Origin: Burkholderia sp. WSM2230
GTDB taxonomy: Bacteria > Pseudomonadota > Gammaproteobacteria > Burkholderiales > Burkholderiaceae
DNA: 64,000 nt
Reading direction: 5' to 3'
NCBI RefSeq assembly: GCF_000472445.1
Contig: NZ_AXAJ01000001.1
Coordinates: 643-64,642 of the forward strand
Shown here: piece by piece, positions 4,474 to 15,549 of the stretch
Layout of the letters: each line of letters starts with the position of its first letter
Position numbering within the stretch: the stretch's first letter is position 1
Notes under the pieces: model-generated
Told to the model about the DNA's origin: nothing
Database searches by the model: none
What the model saw: the letters and a program-made list of their open reading frames with translations, nothing else
Translations under genes and position numbers: made by a program

Positions 4474-6738
4474 ATGAACAGGATTCCGCCGGCAGCATAC
4501 GACCAGAACAATTCACGTCGGCGGGAGGCGCGCAATGCGCTGCTGCCGCTTGCCGCGGCGCTATTGTGCTGCGTGAGTTCATTCGACGCGCGAGCCGCGG
4601 GCGCATTGCCCGCAGGCGGGCAATTCGTCGGCGGGACCGGGTCCATCAGCAGCAACGGCACAACGCTGACGATCGATCAGGGCTCGGGACGCGGCGTTGT
4701 GAACTGGAACAGTTTTTCCATCGGCAGCGGCAACCGTGTGGTGTTTGCCAACGGCAACGGCGCGACGCTCAACCGTGTGACCGGCGGCTCACCATCTGCG
4801 ATTCTCGGCACGCTCACCGCAAGCGGCAGCGTCTATCTGATCAACCCGCAAGGCATCCTTGTCGGACGGGGAGGCGTAATTTCGACGAACGGACGCTTCG
4901 TCGCGTCCACGCTCGACGTTGCGGACACCGACGCCTTCATGAACGGCGGGCCGCTGACGCTATCGGGCAATTCGAGCGCGGGCGTGGTCAATCTCGGCAC
5001 GATTGCATCCGGCGGCAGCGACGTATTTCTGATCGCACGGCAGCAGGTGGGCAACGCCGGCACCATTAGTGCGCCGAACGGCACGGTTGAACTGGCGGTC
5101 GGGCAGCAGGTGCTGCTGCAGGATTCGTCGTCGGGCCGACAGGTGTTCGTGCAGCCGGCGCAGCAGGGCGGGGGCGGGACCATCATGAACCGCGGCCTGA
5201 TTCAGGCGGCGCAGATCAGCCTGCAAGCCGTGGACGGCAACATCTACGCGCTCGCCGGCAACCACGAGGCGATTCGCGCGACGGGCACGGCCACGCGCGA
5301 CGGACACGTGTGGCTGGTCGCGGGGCACGGCACGTTGCAAGCGGGTGGCGCAATCGAGGCAAGCGGCGGCACTGTCGACATGAGCGCGGATACGCTCGCG
5401 TTCCCCATGGGCGGCACGACGGTCCGTGCAAATCAGTGGAACATCGCGACACCCAGCTTCACCGTCGACGACAACGCGGCGCGCGCGCTGTCGGCAAGTC
5501 TCGGCACTGGAACGTCGGTCAATCTGCAGACGACCGGCGCAAACGGCAGCACCGGCGACATTGGCGTGAACTCGGGCATCGCGTGGCAAGGCAATGGGTC
5601 GCTCACACTCGCGGCGTATCGCAACCTGAGCATCGCGCAAGGCGCAACCATTGCCAACCAGGGCAGCGGCAACCTCACATTGCGCGCGGATGCCGCCAGC
5701 CTCGATAACGGCGGCAGCATCGCGAATCGCGGCGTGATCGACTGGTCGGGCAGCACAGGGCTCGTCAATGCGCTTTACGATATGAACGGCACCTATAGCG
5801 CCGGCAGCCTGCTCGGCAATCCCGCGTGGAGTGCAGCGCCCGGCAGTGGGCAGCTCACGCAGATCACCGCGTACAAGCTGGTCAACAACGTGACGGACCT
5901 GCAGAACATTTCGCAGGATCTCGCGGGCAACTACGCGCTCGGCACGGACATCGACGCGAGCGGTTATACGTTGACGCCAATCGGCAATCACACGACGCCC
6001 TTCACCGGTCAATTCGACGGCATGTGGCACAGCGTGCGCAATGCACGCATCGAGGTCGCCGACTTCAGCAAGGACTATTCGTCGGGACTCTTCGGCGTAG
6101 TGGGGCTGGCAGGCGTTCTGCGCGACGTGGGCGTGGAAGACGGCCATGTCAGCACGAGTTCTGCCGGCAGCGGCCTTCTGGCGGGTTTGAATCAGGGCGT
6201 GATTGCTAACGCGCACTCGACTGGTGTGGCGATGGAGGTCTATCAGAACGGCACGATGTTCGGCGGACTGGTAGGTCGCAATGAAGGCACCGTCGAGCGC
6301 TCGTGGAGCAGCGCCGCGGTATCGGGCTCGGATGCGAACGGCGGGCTCGTCGGCTACAACCTGGGTTCGATTGCGCAGTCGTACGCGACTGGCAGCGTCA
6401 GCCCGGTTTTCTCGACCGGGTCCGGCGGCGGGCTGGTCGGTATCAACGATGGAAGCGTGAGCCAGTCGTTCGCAACAGGCGCGGTCGAAACGCGAAGGAT
6501 GCCGACGCACGGCGTGGTTGCGTTCGGCTCCGGCACGCTCGCGCCGGACGTCTACTGGAACAGGGAGACGACAGGGCAGGCCGCGAGCGGCGGCAGCCTG
6601 CCGCCGTCTAACGGGCTCACCACCGCGCAGATGAGCGACCCCGCGAGCTTCGCGGGCTATGACTTCGGGGCCAACGGCGTATGGGCGATGCCGTCTGGCG
6701 CGACCCAGCCTGTGTTGCGCTGGCAGCTTGCGCATTAG
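4474..6738 (+). CDS. TpsA exoprotein: haemagglutination domain plus GLUG repeats
   Basis: The start is the ATG at 4474, which has AAAGGAG 5 bases upstream (4462-4468); the in-frame TTG at 4453 has none. The product is 754 residues. After a long positively charged signal region (to about residue 38) comes the filamentous-haemagglutinin N-terminal TPS domain (about 40-150), with the hallmark NPQGILV (about 124-130) and a following VASTLDV. Gly/Asn-rich beta-helix sequence follows. Three GLUG motifs start near residues 597, 624 and 652 (GGLVGRNEGTV, GGLVGYNLGSI, GGLVGINDGSV). It is short for a haemagglutinin and resembles secreted TpsA adhesins or matrix proteins. Secretion should go through the TpsB encoded just downstream. 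Confidence 0.9.
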   Translation: MNRIPPAAYDQNNSRRREARNALLPLAAALLCCVSSFDARAAGALPAGGQFVGGTGSISSNGTTLTIDQGSGRGVVNWNSFSIGSGNRVVFANGNGATLNRVTGGSPSAILGTLTASGSVYLINPQGILVGRGGVISTNGRFVASTLDVADTDAFMNGGPLTLSGNSSAGVVNLGTIASGGSDVFLIARQQVGNAGTISAPNGTVELAVGQQVLLQDSSSGRQVFVQPAQQGGGGTIMNRGLIQAAQISLQAVDGNIYALAGNHEAIRATGTATRDGHVWLVAGHGTLQAGGAIEASGGTVDMSADTLAFPMGGTTVRANQWNIATPSFTVDDNAARALSASLGTGTSVNLQTTGANGSTGDIGVNSGIAWQGNGSLTLAAYRNLSIAQGATIANQGSGNLTLRADAASLDNGGSIANRGVIDWSGSTGLVNALYDMNGTYSAGSLLGNPAWSAAPGSGQLTQITAYKLVNNVTDLQNISQDLAGNYALGTDIDASGYTLTPIGNHTTPFTGQFDGMWHSVRNARIEVADFSKDYSSGLFGVVGLAGVLRDVGVEDGHVSTSSAGSGLLAGLNQGVIANAHSTGVAMEVYQNGTMFGGLVGRNEGTVERSWSSAAVSGSDANGGLVGYNLGSIAQSYATGSVSPVFSTGSGGGLVGINDGSVSQSFATGAVETRRMPTHGVVAFGSGTLAPDVYWNRETTGQAASGGSLPPSNGLTTAQMSDPASFAGYDFGANGVWAMPSGATQPVLRWQLAH

Positions 6739-8509
6739 GCGGCGGGCTTCATTCGCGGATGCGCCGGCGCGCGCGGTCCGCGCGCGTTGGGTGGTGGCGC
6801 CGTGCGCGATGTTTGCTCTGCACGCTTCTGCCGGTTTCGCGCAGGCCTGGCGCGACGTCGCCCCGCAACCCGCGCCGCCGACGCCGCGCAGTGCGCCGTC
6901 GCAACCTTCGGCGTCATCGGCAGAGAATGCCGCGCAGATTGCAGTGGGCCGGCTCGAAGGCCTTGTGTTCGAAGCCGCGGGCAGCAGCGCGCCCGCCTCC
7001 GCAATGCAGCCCGGCATTACCGCCGAACGCCTCCCCATTCTGGACGCAGCATTTCTCCACACGTTCGACAGCGATCTGGGCAAGCCGCTCACATTTGGAC
7101 GCCTCGCCGAAATACGCCACGCCGTGATCGAGCGTTATCGTGCCGCGGGGAAACCGCTCGTGGATGTGTACGTGCCCGAGCAGGACGTGAGTTCCGGCGT
7201 CGTGCGTATCGCGGTTGCGGAGTTTCGCCTCGGTGAAGTGCGCACGAGCGGCAACCGCTACTTCTCCGACGCCCTGTTGAAACGCGAGATGCCGCTCAAG
7301 GCAGGCGACCCGATTCTGCAAGCGGACGTCTCGCTGGGCCTTGCGGTACTCAACGCGAATCCCTATCGACGCGTAGATGCGGTCTTCGCGCCAGGCGAAG
7401 CCGCGAATTCAACCGACGTCATCCTGCAGACCGACGACCGTCTGCCGTTGCGGGCAAACGCCGGCTACGACAACGCCGGTGTGCGCGATCTCGGCCGCGA
7501 CCGCTTCTTCGCGGGCATCGACTATGGCAACCTGTTTGGTCTCGATCAGCACGTCGCGTATCAATTCACGGCGAGCAATGATTTCCTGAGCGGCAATCCC
7601 GACATCGAGGGACGTGCGAACCGCGCGCGCTTTCTGGCCCACGCGCTCAGCTACATTGCGCCGCTGCCGTGGCACGACAGCATCGAATTGTTCGGCGTCT
7701 ATGCGCAGAGCACGCCACGTCTGCCCGACAGTTACGGGCAAACGGGCATTTCCGCGCAGATCAGCGCTCGCTACGACTGGCGTTTGCCGACGACAGGCGA
7801 TACCGCGCAGCTCGTGCAGTTCGGCTATGACTTCAAGCGCAGCAACAACGATCTGGAATTCGGCGGGTTTCAGGTGTTCAACTCGAACACACACGTGCAC
7901 CAGTTTCTGCTCACCTACGATCTGAGCAAGCCGGGCGATGCGGGCGCCGCGCATGCATCCGCGACGCTCGTGGCAAGTCCAGGCGGGCTGGACGGCTCCA
8001 ACAACGACACCGCTTTCGGCACTGCGCGGCACGGCGCGACTGCCCGCTATGCTTATCTGCAGATCGCCGCGCAACGCGCGTTTGCACTCGGCGGTGGCTT
8101 CACGTTAAACACGCGAGGCACCTTCCAGTGGACGCCGAATACCTTATTGCCGAGCGAGGAGATGGGCCTCGGTGGAGAGTCCAGTGTGCGGGGCTACGAG
8201 CCGTACGTCGTGCTAGGCGATCGCGGCTGGAACGTGCAGACGGAATTGCGCGCGCCCGTTTTGCCGTTCGGCGCGAGCAGCGCGGCCGCGCAGCCTTTTG
8301 TGTTCGTCGACGCCGGCCATGCGTGGAACCGGATCGATCAGCCCGCGGAGCCCGGTAACGCATCGCTCGTCAGCGTCGGCGCGGGCGTGCGTTTTCAATG
8401 GTCGCGCTTCGTGGATTTTCGCTGCACGTATGGCGTGCCGCTGCGCGCGCCGGCTCCCGGCGCATCGAAGGCGCCGATGGTGCTTCTGTTCGTTTCCATC
8501 GGCACTTAA
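6659..8509 (+). CDS. TpsB outer-membrane transporter (ShlB/FhaC/HecB family)
   Basis: This is the partner pore of the preceding TpsA. It has a proline-rich N-terminal linker, a POTRA region (about residues 110-235, containing GVVRIAVAEFRLGEVR), and a beta-barrel with the conserved VRGY tetrad of loop 6 (near nt 8185). The family inserts in the outer membrane and exports one TpsA substrate. The start is uncertain. The ATG at 6659 lies 80 bases inside the TpsA gene in another frame. A TTG at 6728 and ATG at 6809 are alternatives, and the TTG would give a more normal signal peptide (positively charged, then APCAMFALHASAGFAQA). The gene overlap or tight spacing indicates translation coupled to TpsA. 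Confidence 0.9.
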   Translation: MTSGPTAYGRCRLARPSLCCAGSLRIRRRASFADAPARAVRARWVVAPCAMFALHASAGFAQAWRDVAPQPAPPTPRSAPSQPSASSAENAAQIAVGRLEGLVFEAAGSSAPASAMQPGITAERLPILDAAFLHTFDSDLGKPLTFGRLAEIRHAVIERYRAAGKPLVDVYVPEQDVSSGVVRIAVAEFRLGEVRTSGNRYFSDALLKREMPLKAGDPILQADVSLGLAVLNANPYRRVDAVFAPGEAANSTDVILQTDDRLPLRANAGYDNAGVRDLGRDRFFAGIDYGNLFGLDQHVAYQFTASNDFLSGNPDIEGRANRARFLAHALSYIAPLPWHDSIELFGVYAQSTPRLPDSYGQTGISAQISARYDWRLPTTGDTAQLVQFGYDFKRSNNDLEFGGFQVFNSNTHVHQFLLTYDLSKPGDAGAAHASATLVASPGGLDGSNNDTAFGTARHGATARYAYLQIAAQRAFALGGGFTLNTRGTFQWTPNTLLPSEEMGLGGESSVRGYEPYVVLGDRGWNVQTELRAPVLPFGASSAAAQPFVFVDAGHAWNRIDQPAEPGNASLVSVGAGVRFQWSRFVDFRCTYGVPLRAPAPGASKAPMVLLFVSIGT

Positions 8510-11895: not shown

Positions 11896-14469
11896 TCAAT
11901 CGCTCGTCGTCTTGCGTTGTTTGCCGGGCGCTTTCGCGGACGCAAAATACGTTTGCAACGCGGGTGCCGAACGGTCGCTCAATGAACAGATACGCGCAAG
12001 CCAGTCTGCTTCCGCAGGCCATTCGCCGTCCACGACGCGCGGATAGATCTGGCGCACGAACTGATGCAGCGCTTTTGCGCCGATATTGCCGCTTACGCCG
12101 AGCAGCATGTGCAAGGCCTCACGTGTCGAATCGAAGTCGCGTGCCGCGACGCTCGTCGCGAGGTTTGCCACCGTCGTGCGAATCTGTTCGATGCCATTCA
12201 GGAAAGTCTGGTCGAGCAAGTCGAGCGCGACCAGTTCCTGCAGATGTTTGTCATCGAGCAATGGACCTTCGTTTCGCGGCTCAAGCTTGCCGGCAGGCAA
12301 CCCCTCTTCATGCGACGACGCTGCCTCTGCCGGCGCATCATGGAGTCGCTGGCGCGCGAACTGCCGTGCCAGCGCCGCATACAGCGCGCCGACTTGCGCG
12401 GGCTTGGTCATCACCTCGTTCATGCCGGCGGCGAGACACTTTTCTACGGCCTCCATGTCGGATTGGCTGGTCAACGCAATGATCGGCAAGCTCGCGTAAG
12501 CGTCGGTACGCGCGCGGATCAGCTCGGTGGTCTCCACGCCGCCCATACCCGGCATGTTCATATCCATCACGATGGCGTCGATGGCCGCGCCTTCCTGCAG
12601 GCGGGCCAGCACCGCGGGGCCGTGCTCGGCTTCGACGACCGTCGCGCCGAAGCGCTCCAGGTATCCCTTCGCGACGAGTCGGCTGTACGTGTCGTCGTCA
12701 GCCAGCAGAATCGTTTTGCCGGCGAAGCCGTCAAAACGCTGGCTGCGACCATGCCGATGACCGCTCTCGAACAGCTTGTGCAGAACACCGATCAACTCGA
12801 CGATGGTCGCCGACTTGCTGACGTATTCGTCCATGCCGGCACGGCGTGCGAGCACACGCGCCACGCTGCCGGGCTCCGCCGTGTAGGCGACGACCATCAC
12901 GTTGCAATTCGGATTGCGACGGTCCGCGCGAATCCGCTCGGTGGCCGTGTAGCCGTCCAGGGCCGGCATGTTGATGTCCATCAGCACCAGGTCCCACGGC
13001 GACGGCTCGCTGAGCGCGGCGAGGGCCGCCTCGCCGTCGGCTGCCTCGCCAGGTTGCGCGCCTGTCTTCAAGAGCGCTCGCCGCACGCGCGTGCGCTGAT
13101 CCGCGTCGTTGTCGACAATCAGGATGCGTTTGCCGTCAAGGAGCAGGGCGGCGCGCGCGAACACTTCCTGCTCGTGCCGCGCGACCTCGCTTTCGGAAAC
13201 AGGCGGAAACTCGAGTGTGAACTGCGTGAACTGGCCGACTTCGGAGCGGCAACGGATGGTGCCGCCGAACGCGCGCATCGCGCGCTGACAGTAAGCGAGC
13301 CCGAGCCCGGTGCCCGCCGAATTGCCGGCGGTGCGGAAGGGTTCGAAAAGATGCGGCAGGATCTCGGGAGCAATGCCGGGCCCGGTGTCATGAACGATCA
13401 CTGTTTGCCGGTCCACCGTCAGCGTGAGCGTTGCGGCAGGATGCGCGGCAATATGATGAAGCGCGTTCTTGATCAGATTGAACAGCGTGAACAGATAGAC
13501 CGTTTCGTCGATCTTGAACGTGAAGTCCTCGAGCACCGCGAGCCTGACTCGCGCTCGCTCGTTATGGTCGCTAAAGCCGTATTCCTCCAGCGCCTTGCGC
13601 GTGGCAGCCGCCGCGCTGACATACGTGAACTGATCGGAGCGGATGGCTTTTGCGCTCACTTCGTCGAGTGTCATCGCGATGATGCGCAAGCCGCGCTCAA
13701 TGGAAAGCTGGCCGTGGGCCAGATGGCGATACAGCAGCGCGGTCCGGCGCTGCGTTGCAGCCGGCGACGCGCGGTGATCCATCGCTGCCGGCAGCACTTC
13801 TTCCACTCTGTCCAGAACATGCTTGAGCTGGCTGAGCGGATTACGCATTTCATGAGCGATTGAGCCGGCCAGCGCGCGAAGCGCTCCTGTGCGCGCCTGC
13901 GCGACGATTCCTTTGAGATTGCTGTATGAGAACGTGATGCCGGCGAAGATGCCGAAGGTGAAAACCGGCAGATAGGTGTAGAGAAACAGATGCGCATCCA
14001 CATGAACGGCTTGCGGAACGACGATTCTCGCGCACAGCACAGCAGCGCCGATGCCGAGCGCCAGGTTCAGTGACAACGCAACGAACGACGGAAAGATGGC
14101 GATCAGGAAGAAGACCATGCCCAGCTCGGCCATCGACCAGAGCATCGAGTAATGCCCTACCAGCAGGTAGTAAGTGAAGAAAAACGGCAGCGTGTAAGCC
14201 ACCGTTACGAAGTAATACCAAGGCAGGAGGCGCGCTACCGAAGCGGGCCAGAAGCGGCGCAGAAGCAGCAACGCGCAACTGGCGGTGCCGAAAACGCGCA
14301 TCAGCAGGTTCTCGTTCGGCTGAGGATCGACGAACGTCCACCAGAACCAGTACACCGGATGCCCGATGGTGCCGATCAGGCCCACAGCCAGTACGCTGTA
14401 GTCGGAGACCTTTGCGGCTTCGGACACCACCCGGTTGAGGTAGCGGATGCCCCCTGAAATGGCTTTCAT
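11896..14469 (-). CDS. CqsS-like membrane hybrid histidine kinase with two receivers and Hpt
   Basis: The product is 857 residues. The N-terminal 185 residues form about six membrane segments resembling the Vibrio CAI-1 receptor CqsS: a 'Y/F..LPFFF' segment (here YTLPFFFTYYLL), then SMLWSMAELGMVF, and an SIAHEMRNPLSQLK histidine box with His206 (CqsS has GIAHEMRNPLSALK). The HATPase has NLIKNALHH (331-339) and DTGPGIAPEILPHLFEPF. Two receivers follow (Asp498, Asp636) and a C-terminal Hpt domain with the HMLLGVSGNIGA signature (His787). So the whole phosphorelay sits in one chain, unlike CqsS, which has a single receiver. The gene lies 42 bases downstream of a FabH-like gene on the same strand and is probably co-transcribed. 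I see no clear ribosome-binding site before the ATG. Confidence 0.92.
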   Translation of the reverse strand: MKAISGGIRYLNRVVSEAAKVSDYSVLAVGLIGTIGHPVYWFWWTFVDPQPNENLLMRVFGTASCALLLLRRFWPASVARLLPWYYFVTVAYTLPFFFTYYLLVGHYSMLWSMAELGMVFFLIAIFPSFVALSLNLALGIGAAVLCARIVVPQAVHVDAHLFLYTYLPVFTFGIFAGITFSYSNLKGIVAQARTGALRALAGSIAHEMRNPLSQLKHVLDRVEEVLPAAMDHRASPAATQRRTALLYRHLAHGQLSIERGLRIIAMTLDEVSAKAIRSDQFTYVSAAAATRKALEEYGFSDHNERARVRLAVLEDFTFKIDETVYLFTLFNLIKNALHHIAAHPAATLTLTVDRQTVIVHDTGPGIAPEILPHLFEPFRTAGNSAGTGLGLAYCQRAMRAFGGTIRCRSEVGQFTQFTLEFPPVSESEVARHEQEVFARAALLLDGKRILIVDNDADQRTRVRRALLKTGAQPGEAADGEAALAALSEPSPWDLVLMDINMPALDGYTATERIRADRRNPNCNVMVVAYTAEPGSVARVLARRAGMDEYVSKSATIVELIGVLHKLFESGHRHGRSQRFDGFAGKTILLADDDTYSRLVAKGYLERFGATVVEAEHGPAVLARLQEGAAIDAIVMDMNMPGMGGVETTELIRARTDAYASLPIIALTSQSDMEAVEKCLAAGMNEVMTKPAQVGALYAALARQFARQRLHDAPAEAASSHEEGLPAGKLEPRNEGPLLDDKHLQELVALDLLDQTFLNGIEQIRTTVANLATSVAARDFDSTREALHMLLGVSGNIGAKALHQFVRQIYPRVVDGEWPAEADWLARICSLSDRSAPALQTYFASAKAPGKQRKTTSD

Positions 14470-14473
14470 GTTG

Positions 14474-14501
14474 CGCTTTGAATTTATCGCTTTGAATTTA
14501 T
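14474..14501. repeat. 14-bp exact tandem duplication between ketosynthase and kinase genes
   Basis: CGCTTTGAATTTAT occurs twice in a row (14474-14487, 14488-14501). On the coding (minus) strand it reads as two copies of ATAAATTCAAAGCG ending 4 bases before the kinase ATG. It is AT-rich in a GC-rich region and occupies the place of the ribosome-binding site. Confidence 0.85.
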
Positions 14502-14511
14502 ATACGTGAGC

Positions 14512-15549
14512 CTAGAACCTGAAGCTGCTGACGTTGAATGACATGCCGGCACTGCCCACCCAGCACAGCACCCTGTCTCCGCGCTTCAGTTCTCCGCTGT
14601 CTTTCGCCATTGCAATCGCGGCGGGAATAGAGGCTGACACGAGGTTCCCGGTCTCCGGATAGATGTGATACATCTTCTCGTGAATTCCCGCCTTTTCTCC
14701 ATACCCGTGCCATGCCGCCTTGGAAGAGGCATGAGTAAAGACAATGTCGATATCTTTCTTCGGAACCGGCAGTTTAGCCAGAACTGCGGATAGTTCGTCG
14801 GAATTCTTGTGAAGCTCGTGGCCAAATGATGTAAAACGCATGTCGCCGTTTTTCCCAATTCGCTCAGACGGATGGCAAAACCCTTCATAGCCGGGAATCG
14901 GGATTGTGCACAGGTCGGACACCTCCGGTTTTCCGCGAAATGCAAAACTGAAGTTGTCCGGCTCCTTCGCAACGAGCAGCGTGGCGGTGGCTGCCTCGCC
15001 GATGGTGAACGACGGCAGCGTGTATTCGATTTGCGCCTGATTCTTCAACGCAAAATTCCCCGGAAAGAGTGGACCGCCGGCCAGCATATTGAACTCGGCA
15101 TTCACGATCATAGCGTTTCTGTACTGACCGCACTTGAACAAACTGTCGATAATCGACATGGCTCTTGTCCAGCTCATGCATGCGTCCACCACGTCGAAGC
15201 ATTCCGCATTGGTGAAACCGAGCGTGCTCGCCATCATATGGCTATTGCCGGGCTCCAGAAAGCCTCTGCCGATTCCGACATAGATAAACAGCTCGATATG
15301 CTCGGGGCGCAAATAGGTTTCCGCCAAAGCCTTGCGAGTGGCCATGGCGACGTGATCGATGGGTGACTCGTGGCTGTCGCACCAGCGCCGGTTCACCAGC
15401 CCGCTCCTGTCGAGCAGCGTCTTGATGGTGCGTATGCCTCTGTCGATGTCACCGTCATAGCCGGTTGAATGGAACCGGATCATGTCGGTGACTTCGTCAT
15501 TCGTCACGATTCTGGAAGGCAGGCTGACCGCCACATTCTTGATAAGCAT
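14512..15549 (-). CDS. FabH-like 3-oxoacyl-ACP synthase III (KAS III family)
   Basis: The product is 345 residues from the ATG at 15549, placed by homology (MLIKNVAVSLPSRIVTNDEV aligns with FabH starts); the upstream frame is Arg-rich junk. The catalytic triad is intact: Cys124 in VDACMSW, His273 in FTHASS, Asn302 in ETGNLVSASIP. It condenses an acyl-thioester with a malonyl-type extender or moves an acyl group; specialised members make signals or secondary metabolites (PqsD, DarB). No acyl carrier protein or other fab gene is nearby, so a housekeeping role is unlikely. It is followed by the CqsS-like kinase gene in a probable two-gene operon. That pairing suggests it makes or modifies a ligand for that kinase, which is inference. 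Confidence 0.9.
   Translation of the reverse strand: MLIKNVAVSLPSRIVTNDEVTDMIRFHSTGYDGDIDRGIRTIKTLLDRSGLVNRRWCDSHESPIDHVAMATRKALAETYLRPEHIELFIYVGIGRGFLEPGNSHMMASTLGFTNAECFDVVDACMSWTRAMSIIDSLFKCGQYRNAMIVNAEFNMLAGGPLFPGNFALKNQAQIEYTLPSFTIGEAATATLLVAKEPDNFSFAFRGKPEVSDLCTIPIPGYEGFCHPSERIGKNGDMRFTSFGHELHKNSDELSAVLAKLPVPKKDIDIVFTHASSKAAWHGYGEKAGIHEKMYHIYPETGNLVSASIPAAIAMAKDSGELKRGDRVLCWVGSAGMSFNVSSFRF

What the first reader, a model, noticed from the sequence alone, without database searches (positions are those of the whole stretch)
11896..15549. FabH-like ketosynthase in an operon with a CqsS-like receptor: possible new quorum-sensing pair
The kinase has the CqsS-type six-helix sensor and histidine box (LPFFF segment, IAHEMRNPLSQLK), known as the receptor for alpha-hydroxyketone CAI-1 in Vibrio; the related Ralstonia PhcS senses a fatty-acid methyl ester. 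In Vibrio the synthase is the PLP enzyme CqsA. Here a complete KAS III enzyme (Cys124, His273, Asn302) stands in its place, 42 bases upstream, with no fab or acp gene around. FabH-type enzymes are known signal makers (PqsD, DarB). I infer that the enzyme makes the kinase ligand. The kinase also carries two receivers and Hpt, a self-contained relay.
Basis: partly seen in the sequence, partly recalled or inferred. Interest (0 to 1): 0.85.

Follow-up and report, generated by a model that had tools for sequence, protein, structure and literature searches.

The report
OleA-like synthase paired with CqsS-like receptor
In Paraburkholderia soil bacteria a gene for an OleA-like enzyme, predicted to join two fatty-acid units, sits directly beside a gene for a CqsS-family sensor kinase, and family trees of the kinase's sensing and signalling halves conflict, so the enzyme likely makes the chemical signal that the kinase is predicted to sense.

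Summary
Both genes are real, 42 bases apart. The enzyme is not housekeeping FabH: its nearest solved structures are OleA, and it keeps OleA's catalytic glutamate (E99), which the genome's own FabH lacks. The sensor is of the CqsS family: 11 of 11 CqsA loci read carry a homologous kinase beside cqsA or one ORF away. All 23 close relatives in named genomes keep the pair adjacent (both genes broken in one). Among 299 family genomes, the one orthologous kinase without the enzyme retains a 25-residue enzyme remnant and has lost its phospho-acceptor histidine.

The strongest evidence is a mosaic. A paralogous kinase in the same genome has a similar core (72%) but a different sensor (26%) and stands behind another enzyme, resembling acyl-ACP reductase. 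Sensor and core trees conflict, with the break just before the histidine box. This looks like exchange of synthase-plus-sensor cassettes on a shared transmitter.

The enzyme therefore likely makes the receptor's ligand. Ligand, export and regulon are untested; linkage of three divergent pairs rests on equal contig lengths; contiguity alone could move enzyme and sensor together. A 2020 paper noted three CPR PpyS homologs beside sensory kinases.

The parts
14512..15549 (-). OleA-like ketosynthase (KAS III fold), 345 aa, predicted signal synthase
15253..15255 (-). E99 codon: equivalent of OleA E117 / PpyS E105 catalytic glutamate
   Evidence: alignment to OleA 3row, family alignments, paper
15178..15180 (-). 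C124 codon: predicted nucleophile (DACMSW motif)
14731..14733 (-). H273 codon
14644..14646 (-). N302 codon
14470..14511 (-). 42-base gap between enzyme and kinase
   Evidence: 24-34 bases in the 23 named relatives
11896..14469 (-). hybrid histidine kinase, 857 aa, CqsS family
13912..14469 (-). six-helix sensor (residues 1-186)
13870..13914 (-). inferred crossover zone (residues 186-200) between sensor and transmitter
   Evidence: sliding identity
13852..13854 (-). H206 codon, predicted phospho-acceptor (IAHEMRNPLSQL)
13201..13485 (-). HATPase_c (residues 329-423)
12781..13128 (-). receiver 1 (about residues 448-563; D498)
12370..12711 (-). receiver 2 (residues 587-700; D636)
12040..12189 (-). 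Hpt-like domain (residues 761-810; H787), just below Pfam cut-off

Best explanation
The two genes likely form a cell-to-cell signalling pair in which the OleA-like ketosynthase would make a lipid-derived signal and the neighbouring CqsS-family kinase would sense it. Predicted steps: C124 takes an acyl group from acyl-CoA or acyl-ACP; E99, by analogy with OleA and PpyS reaching in from the partner subunit, activates its alpha carbon; a second acyl thioester is attacked; the beta-keto product loses CO2 to give a ketone, or cyclises. The product would cross membranes, bind the six-helix sensor and change phosphorylation of H206, passing through the two receivers and Hpt to a partner such as the receiver-kinase protein that lies beside the kinase in 11 of 23 relatives. 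Shown here: gene adjacency, catalytic residues, sensor family, and conflicting histories of sensor and transmitter. Inferred: chemistry, ligand, export, output.
For: (1) Adjacency in 23 of 23 named loci, of which only 5 share the window's flanking genes at 70% identity or more, and on a P. caribensis plasmid; 12 of 12 orthologs among 299 family genomes (this set overlaps the named one). (2) Decay together: of 13 kinases of at least 69% identity in those 299 genomes, the only one without the enzyme (G157) keeps 25 C-terminal enzyme residues and has Q in place of H206; in P. ultramafica both genes are broken. (3) Identity between paralogs A and B is 26% in the sensor and 72% in the core (70 pairs). 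Sensor data reject A+B as one clade (p-AU 1.8e-30); core data reject A plus nine divergent kinases with A-type sensors (p-AU 2.8e-5). (4) For the three divergent pairs the enzyme tree has the branching order of the sensor tree, the outermost step weakly supported (80/31). (5) OleA at Foldseek ranks 1-16; E99 in 121 of 130. (6) 11 of 11 CqsA loci carry a homologous kinase, 7 directly beside cqsA and 4 with one ORF between; seven shorter homologs also stand near a CqsA over cut-off; three of four published CqsS ligand positions are W, F and F in the query.
Against: No chemistry, binding or expression data. Enzyme and sensor are contiguous in DNA, so one crossover would move both even without a shared ligand. 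Distant enzyme relatives (38-48%) stand without a recognisable kinase, beside fatty-acyl-AMP ligases or FabZ-like genes, so the family is not dedicated to signalling. Eight of 130 aligned sequences have K at position 99. B-type kinases exist without their enzyme and with intact histidine (L089, L096), and one divergent kinase (P0168, partner unknown) also has Q at H206. In L024 the kinase frame is split while the enzyme is intact. S107 of CqsS is A114 here. No exporter or autoregulation was shown.
Confidence: 0.66

Rival explanations
1. The enzyme is the output, not the input: the kinase senses another ligand (host, membrane or fatty-acid state) and the enzyme makes a lipid, ketone or antibiotic under its control.
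For: Distant relatives of the enzyme lie in biosynthetic-looking clusters with acyl-AMP ligases, a P450 or exporters. Local operons of kinase and target are common (recalled).
Against: The sensor half, not the transmitter half, shares the enzyme's history; an output enzyme would be expected to follow the transmitter. Apart from the two genes, the only ORF family that recurs in more than 7 of the loci compared is the receiver-kinase protein.
Confidence: 0.18
2. Linked hitch-hiking: one recombination upstream of the histidine box brought in a foreign sensor and, with it, the neighbouring enzyme gene, without a ligand relation.
For: Enzyme gene and sensor region are contiguous; one crossover moves both.
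Against: The enzyme is kept under purifying selection (dN/dS 0.016-0.052), adjacency survives in changing flanks, decay is joint in two loci, and the same enzyme-sensor linkage is inferred in divergent lineages.
Confidence: 0.1
3. The enzyme is a duplicated housekeeping FabH that happens to lie there.
For: KAS III fold and Cys-His-Asn residues; Pfam ACP_syn_III domains.
Against: 74 bits for TIGR00747 fabH against a cut-off of 292; the genome's own fabH, in a cluster laid out like plsX-fabH-fabD-fabG-acpP-fabF (gene names by layout and size, not by profile), is 26% identical and has F where this enzyme has E99; top structural hits are OleA.
Confidence: 0.03
4. The enzyme degrades or modifies a signal made elsewhere, tuning the receptor beside it.
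For: Adjacency alone cannot tell synthesis from turnover.
Against: An OleA-type active site with E99, C124, H273, N302 points to condensation; in this receptor family cqsA, the known synthase gene, lies beside the kinase or one ORF away in 11 of 11 loci read.
Confidence: 0.05

Closest known systems
CqsA/CqsS (Vibrio) and LqsA/LqsS (Legionella)
   Same: Six-helix membrane sensor kinase of the same family near its signal synthase; W104, F162 and the bulky variant of C170 are kept.
   Different: The synthase is an OleA-like ketosynthase, not a PLP enzyme; the own genome has no CqsA over cut-off; S107 is A; the kinase has two receivers and an Hpt-like domain.
PhcB/PhcS/PhcR (Ralstonia)
   Same: Synthase-kinase order, and in 11 of 23 relatives a protein with a receiver plus a kinase domain, the architecture described for PhcR.
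   Different: Ketosynthase instead of methyltransferase; the PhcR-like gene is convergent rather than in the operon; PhcB and PhcS sequences were not compared.
PpyS homologs beside sensory kinases in CPR bacteria (PMC7567580, passages)
   Same: An OleA-related ketosynthase homolog next to a putative sensory kinase, proposed there as a candidate quorum-sensing system.
   Different: Three homologs in one CPR phylum, kinase family not given in the passages; no receptor mosaic; sequences not compared here.
PpyS/PluR photopyrone signalling (Photorhabdus)
   Same: Signal made by an OleA-related ketosynthase with a catalytic glutamate.
   Different: PluR is LuxR-like, not a membrane kinase; PpyS sequence was not compared here.
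OleA (Xanthomonas) olefin pathway
   Same: Closest solved structures; same Glu-Cys-His-Asn set.
   Different: Long separating branch and DACMSW motif instead of the NACLAF of 3row; Pfam on ten neighbours shows no AMP-ligase or hydrolase of the OleBC kind.
agr and comQXP pherotype loci (recalled)
   Same: Polymorphic synthase-signal-sensor block in front of a conserved transmitter.
   Different: Peptide signals; here the exchanged unit would be a lipid enzyme plus a sensor half.

Membership tests
CqsS-type receptor family | Sensor homologous to kinases linked to CqsA | tested here: met
   11 of 11 CqsA loci carry a homologous kinase; sensor alone matches in 10 of 11, E down to 1e-27 (E-values for a 7-sequence database)
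CqsS-type receptor family | Six-helix sensor, then H-box and HATPase | tested here: met
   model, Pfam, alignment
CqsS-type receptor family | Ligand residues W104, S107, F162, C170/F175 | tested here: inconclusive
   W111, A114, F172, F180: three of four kept, mapped by alignment to CqsA-linked kinases
CqsA/CqsS alpha-hydroxyketone system | PLP-dependent CqsA synthase | tested here: not met
   no CqsA over cut-off in own genome, best 196 of 428 bits; partner is a ketosynthase
OleA-type ketosynthase | Glu base plus Cys-His-Asn | tested here: met
   E99, C124, H273, N302
OleA-type ketosynthase | Score over the cut-off of PRK09258 (the NCBIfam model that I take to hold OleA) | tested here: not met
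   117 bits against 285
OleA-type ketosynthase | Non-decarboxylative condensation of two acyl thioesters | not testable with these tools
   needs enzymology
Housekeeping FabH | Score over the TIGR00747 cut-off | tested here: not met
   74 against 292 bits
PhcBSR | PhcB methyltransferase partner | tested here: not met
   partner is a KAS III fold enzyme
Quorum-sensing system | Diffusible self-made signal that controls genes by density | not testable with these tools
   no metabolite or expression data

The most novel reading that the evidence does not exclude
CqsS-family receptors in Burkholderiaceae are built from exchangeable cassettes, each an acyl-thioester enzyme plus its matching six-helix sensor, spliced onto a common kinase core. 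The window holds one cassette (OleA-like ketosynthase) and a second contig of the same genome another (acyl-ACP-reductase-like enzyme). They would define two undescribed classes of lipid autoinducer and a membrane-kinase counterpart of peptide pherotype switching.
Probability: 0.45. Interest if true: 0.87.

Novelty: new variant of a known kind. Interest (0 to 1): 0.73.

Why it matters
If true, a receptor family known for ligands made by a PLP enzyme (and, by recall, the related PhcS for a methyltransferase product) gains another synthase class, with a probable further one in the same genome. The mosaic turns a general question, how a lipid signal and its receptor change specificity together, into a directly testable case with natural exchange partners. 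Of my ten literature searches nine bear on this. The nearest report I saw is PMC7567580 (passages): three PpyS homologs beside a putative sensory kinase in CPR bacteria. In the listings, abstracts and passages seen I found no paper on a Burkholderiaceae ketosynthase paired with a CqsS-type kinase, or on the sensor exchange; most listed papers were not opened, and subscription journals and preprints are largely not held, so this is no proof of absence.

Tried and rejected
Housekeeping FabH: rejected. PhcB as the enzyme beside the paralogous kinase: considered and dropped without comparing sequences; that 404-aa protein has no Pfam match, is called 'predicted amino acid dehydrogenase' or hypothetical by sources, and its family profile finds first an 'amino acid adenylation domain protein' structure (9e4x, E 3.4e-13, residues 112-313) and then long-chain acyl-ACP reductase (6jzu, E 5.5e-6); 'reductase-like' rests on the latter and on a weak NCBIfam match. 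A synthase swap at G157 was my first idea; the upstream genes proved to be a sugar ABC transporter and a GH42, with an enzyme remnant. I first took the short kinases of L097-L103 as lacking CqsA; a check shows CqsA over cut-off beside 7 of 7. GC content as a sign of foreign origin: enzyme and sensor are lower in GC than the rest, but the paralog's sensor is too, so not decisive. Divergent pairs in whole genomes: an order-wide search of 399 genomes gave one relative besides the own and a class-wide search of 369 gave two, one on a short contig, neither of the two with a recognisable kinase beside it. Core data do not firmly place A inside B rather than beside it (p-AU 0.093). The AU groups were named after I had seen identities and one tree, which weakens the p values. 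Two long-branch CqsA-linked kinases (L141, L144) and the seven kinC rows were dropped from the sensor and core trees. The kinase model (pTM 0.38) was not searched. Of 15 B-type kinases at 41-47% I read 11.
Full report
OBSERVATION. The two genes are as described. The enzyme (14512-15549, minus strand, 345 aa) and the kinase (11896-14469, minus strand, 857 aa) are complete and 42 bases apart. C124, H273 and N302 are present. The kinase has HATPase_c and two receivers over Pfam cut-offs and an Hpt match just below cut-off. Ten neighbouring ORFs are ShlB-type secretion, PAP2, GYD, flavohaemoglobin-like, GNAT, periplasmic binding protein and ABC transporter genes; none is fab or acp.

THE ENZYME IS OLEA-LIKE, NOT HOUSEKEEPING. 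It scores far below the cut-off of all nine NCBIfam models that it matches (PRK09258 117 of 285 bits; fabH 74 of 292). The best PDB sequence match is OleA 3row. A 59-sequence AlphaFold2 model (mean pLDDT 92) finds OleA at Foldseek ranks 1-16, then a protein deposited as FabH from Xanthomonas, further OleA entries, PqsD and FabH. In the OleA alignment the query's LEPGNS matches LEPSTA, whose glutamate lies 26 residues before C143 and is therefore E117. PMC4578411 (parts 1 and 2 of 3 read) reports that OleA E117 and PpyS E105 act as the base, that E105A abolishes product, and that a second group of PpyS homologs, with members from Burkholderia, has unknown function. The query's E99 is E in 121 of 130 aligned sequences (8 K; the own-genome FabH has F). 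The family also has its own motif, DAC-M-(S/A)-W, and a long separating branch, so I do not file it as OleA.

THE SENSOR IS CQSS-LIKE. To test this without recalled sequences I searched 299 genomes of the phylum for the CqsA model PRK07179. Eleven had CqsA over cut-off; the own genome did not. All 11 loci carry a kinase homologous to the window's kinase, 7 directly beside cqsA and 4 with one ORF between, and in 10 of 11 the sensor alone matches. Seven shorter homologs in Burkholderiaceae genomes (L097-L103, 31-36% identity to the query's first 300 residues) also have a CqsA over cut-off close by, 7 of 7. Published ligand positions of CqsS (PMC3376566 passages; PMC3285556 passages) map by alignment to W111 (W104), A114 (S107), F172 (F162) and F180 (C170, which is F in V. 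harveyi). A glutamate, E115, fills the position after A114 in 8 of 8 A, 8 of 9 divergent A-type and 20 of 20 B sensors, and in 0 of 9 CqsA-linked ones (two of the 11 not in this alignment), which suggests different ligand chemistry.

THE PAIR IS CONSERVED AND MOVES. A scan of genome contigs gave 27 loci; 23 are enzymes of 82-99% identity in 20 Paraburkholderia and 3 'Burkholderia sp.' records, and all 23 have the kinase next. Only 5 of the 23 share the window's flanking genes, and one further pair is on plasmid 2 of P. caribensis. Of 299 family genomes 16 hold the enzyme at E 1e-20 or better; 12 are orthologs (82% or more), all with the kinase; the other 4 hold 38-42% relatives without it. The two genome sets overlap, so these counts are not independent.

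DECAY TOGETHER. Thirteen of the 299 genomes have a kinase of at least 69% identity. The one without the enzyme, G157, retains 25 residues of the enzyme's C-terminus upstream of the kinase, and the kinase has glutamine in place of H206. P. ultramafica (L040) has both genes broken. In L024 the kinase frame is split while the enzyme is intact, which runs the other way.

A SECOND PAIR AND A MOSAIC. The same genome holds a paralogous kinase on contig C3 (L049). Directly upstream of it is a 404-aa enzyme with no Pfam match, called 'predicted amino acid dehydrogenase' by sources; its profile matches an adenylation-domain-protein structure best and long-chain acyl-ACP reductase next. Nine of the 11 B-type loci that I read, of 15 found, have that enzyme; L089 and L096 do not. 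The two paralogs share 72% identity in the core but 26% in the sensor (70 pairs), while within either group sensor and core are about equal (77/76, 81/79). Divergent kinases that share a contig length with a relative of the ketosynthase (P0166, P0165, P0239) are closer to A in the sensor (55, 49, 34%) than B is (26%), though their cores (47, 54, 49%) are far more distant than B's (72%). P0242, which shares a contig length with a relative of the second enzyme, has a B-type sensor (65% to B, 28% to A) on a core about equally far from both (56, 53%). Sensor-only and core-only trees conflict. Sensor data reject A+B (p-AU 1.8e-30) and core data reject A with the nine divergent A-type kinases (p-AU 2.8e-5); identity switches at residues 186-200, immediately before the histidine box. 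The ketosynthase tree places P0013, P0016 and P0079, the enzymes matched to P0166, P0165 and P0239, in the order that the sensor tree shows; the outermost step has weak support (80/31).

A THIRD PARTNER. Eleven of the 23 enzyme loci have a convergent gene for a receiver plus HisKA plus HATPase protein beside the kinase (a fragment in L033), and 7 of the 11 B-type loci have it nearby (domains shown for L029 and L049). That is the architecture reported for PhcR (PMC10653808, passages). In the window's genome the copy near the paralog is present and none lies near the window pair. The 11 enzyme-locus copies form one clade (100/98), consistent with duplication of a core-plus-partner unit and replacement of its upstream half.

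MECHANISM. The simplest reading is that the ketosynthase makes the ligand of the sensor beside it: the two share a history that the transmitter does not share, and they decay together in two loci. OleA-type chemistry gives beta-keto acids that lose CO2 to ketones (recalled), close in kind to CAI-1, (S)-3-hydroxytridecan-4-one. No acyl ligase or ACP gene was found among the ten neighbours scanned, so the substrates would come from general fatty-acid metabolism. These chemical steps are predictions.

PRIOR REPORT. PMC7567580 (passages only) lists three PpyS homologs adjacent to a putative sensory kinase in CPR bacteria as candidate quorum-sensing systems. That is an independent precedent for a ketosynthase beside a kinase; the kinase family there is not given in the passages seen.

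LIMITS. No experiment bears on the ligand. Contiguity of enzyme and sensor means that one crossover moves both. Four divergent linkages rest on equal contig lengths. The wider enzyme family (38-48%) lies beside fatty-acyl-AMP ligases or FabZ-like genes without a recognisable kinase, so recruitment into signalling is probably derived within the family.

Noticed in passing
L049:8669-12587 (own genome, contig C3): A second enzyme-kinase pair: a protein with no Pfam match, distantly like acyl-ACP reductase, in front of a CqsS-family kinase; present in 9 of 11 loci read; a further candidate signal synthase class.
   Followed up: partly
L087:6441-9120: Orphan kinase with a 25-residue enzyme remnant upstream and Q in place of the phospho-acceptor histidine, beside a sugar ABC transporter and a GH42 gene.
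   Followed up: yes
L051, L052, L053, L054: A relative of the ketosynthase (38-41%) clusters with a FabZ-like protein (profile in L051 and L053, by similarity in the others); L051 also has a UbiB-aminotransferase fusion and an exporter of the RND/MMPL kind: a biosynthetic-looking cluster.
   Followed up: partly
   Followed up: partly
P0097, P0100, P0104, P0106, P0109, P0110, P0114, P0118: Eight enzyme homologs carry lysine at the catalytic glutamate position with Cys-His-Asn intact; possibly a different chemistry.
   Followed up: no
L097-L103: Shorter CqsS-like kinases (440-493 aa) with an overlapping ORF of 352-376 aa (a receiver domain shown in L098) and a CqsA over cut-off close by in 7 of 7: Lqs-type alpha-hydroxyketone clusters in Burkholderiaceae, absent from the window's genome.
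   Followed up: partly
6659-8509: ShlB/FhaC-type two-partner secretion transporter gene.
   Followed up: no
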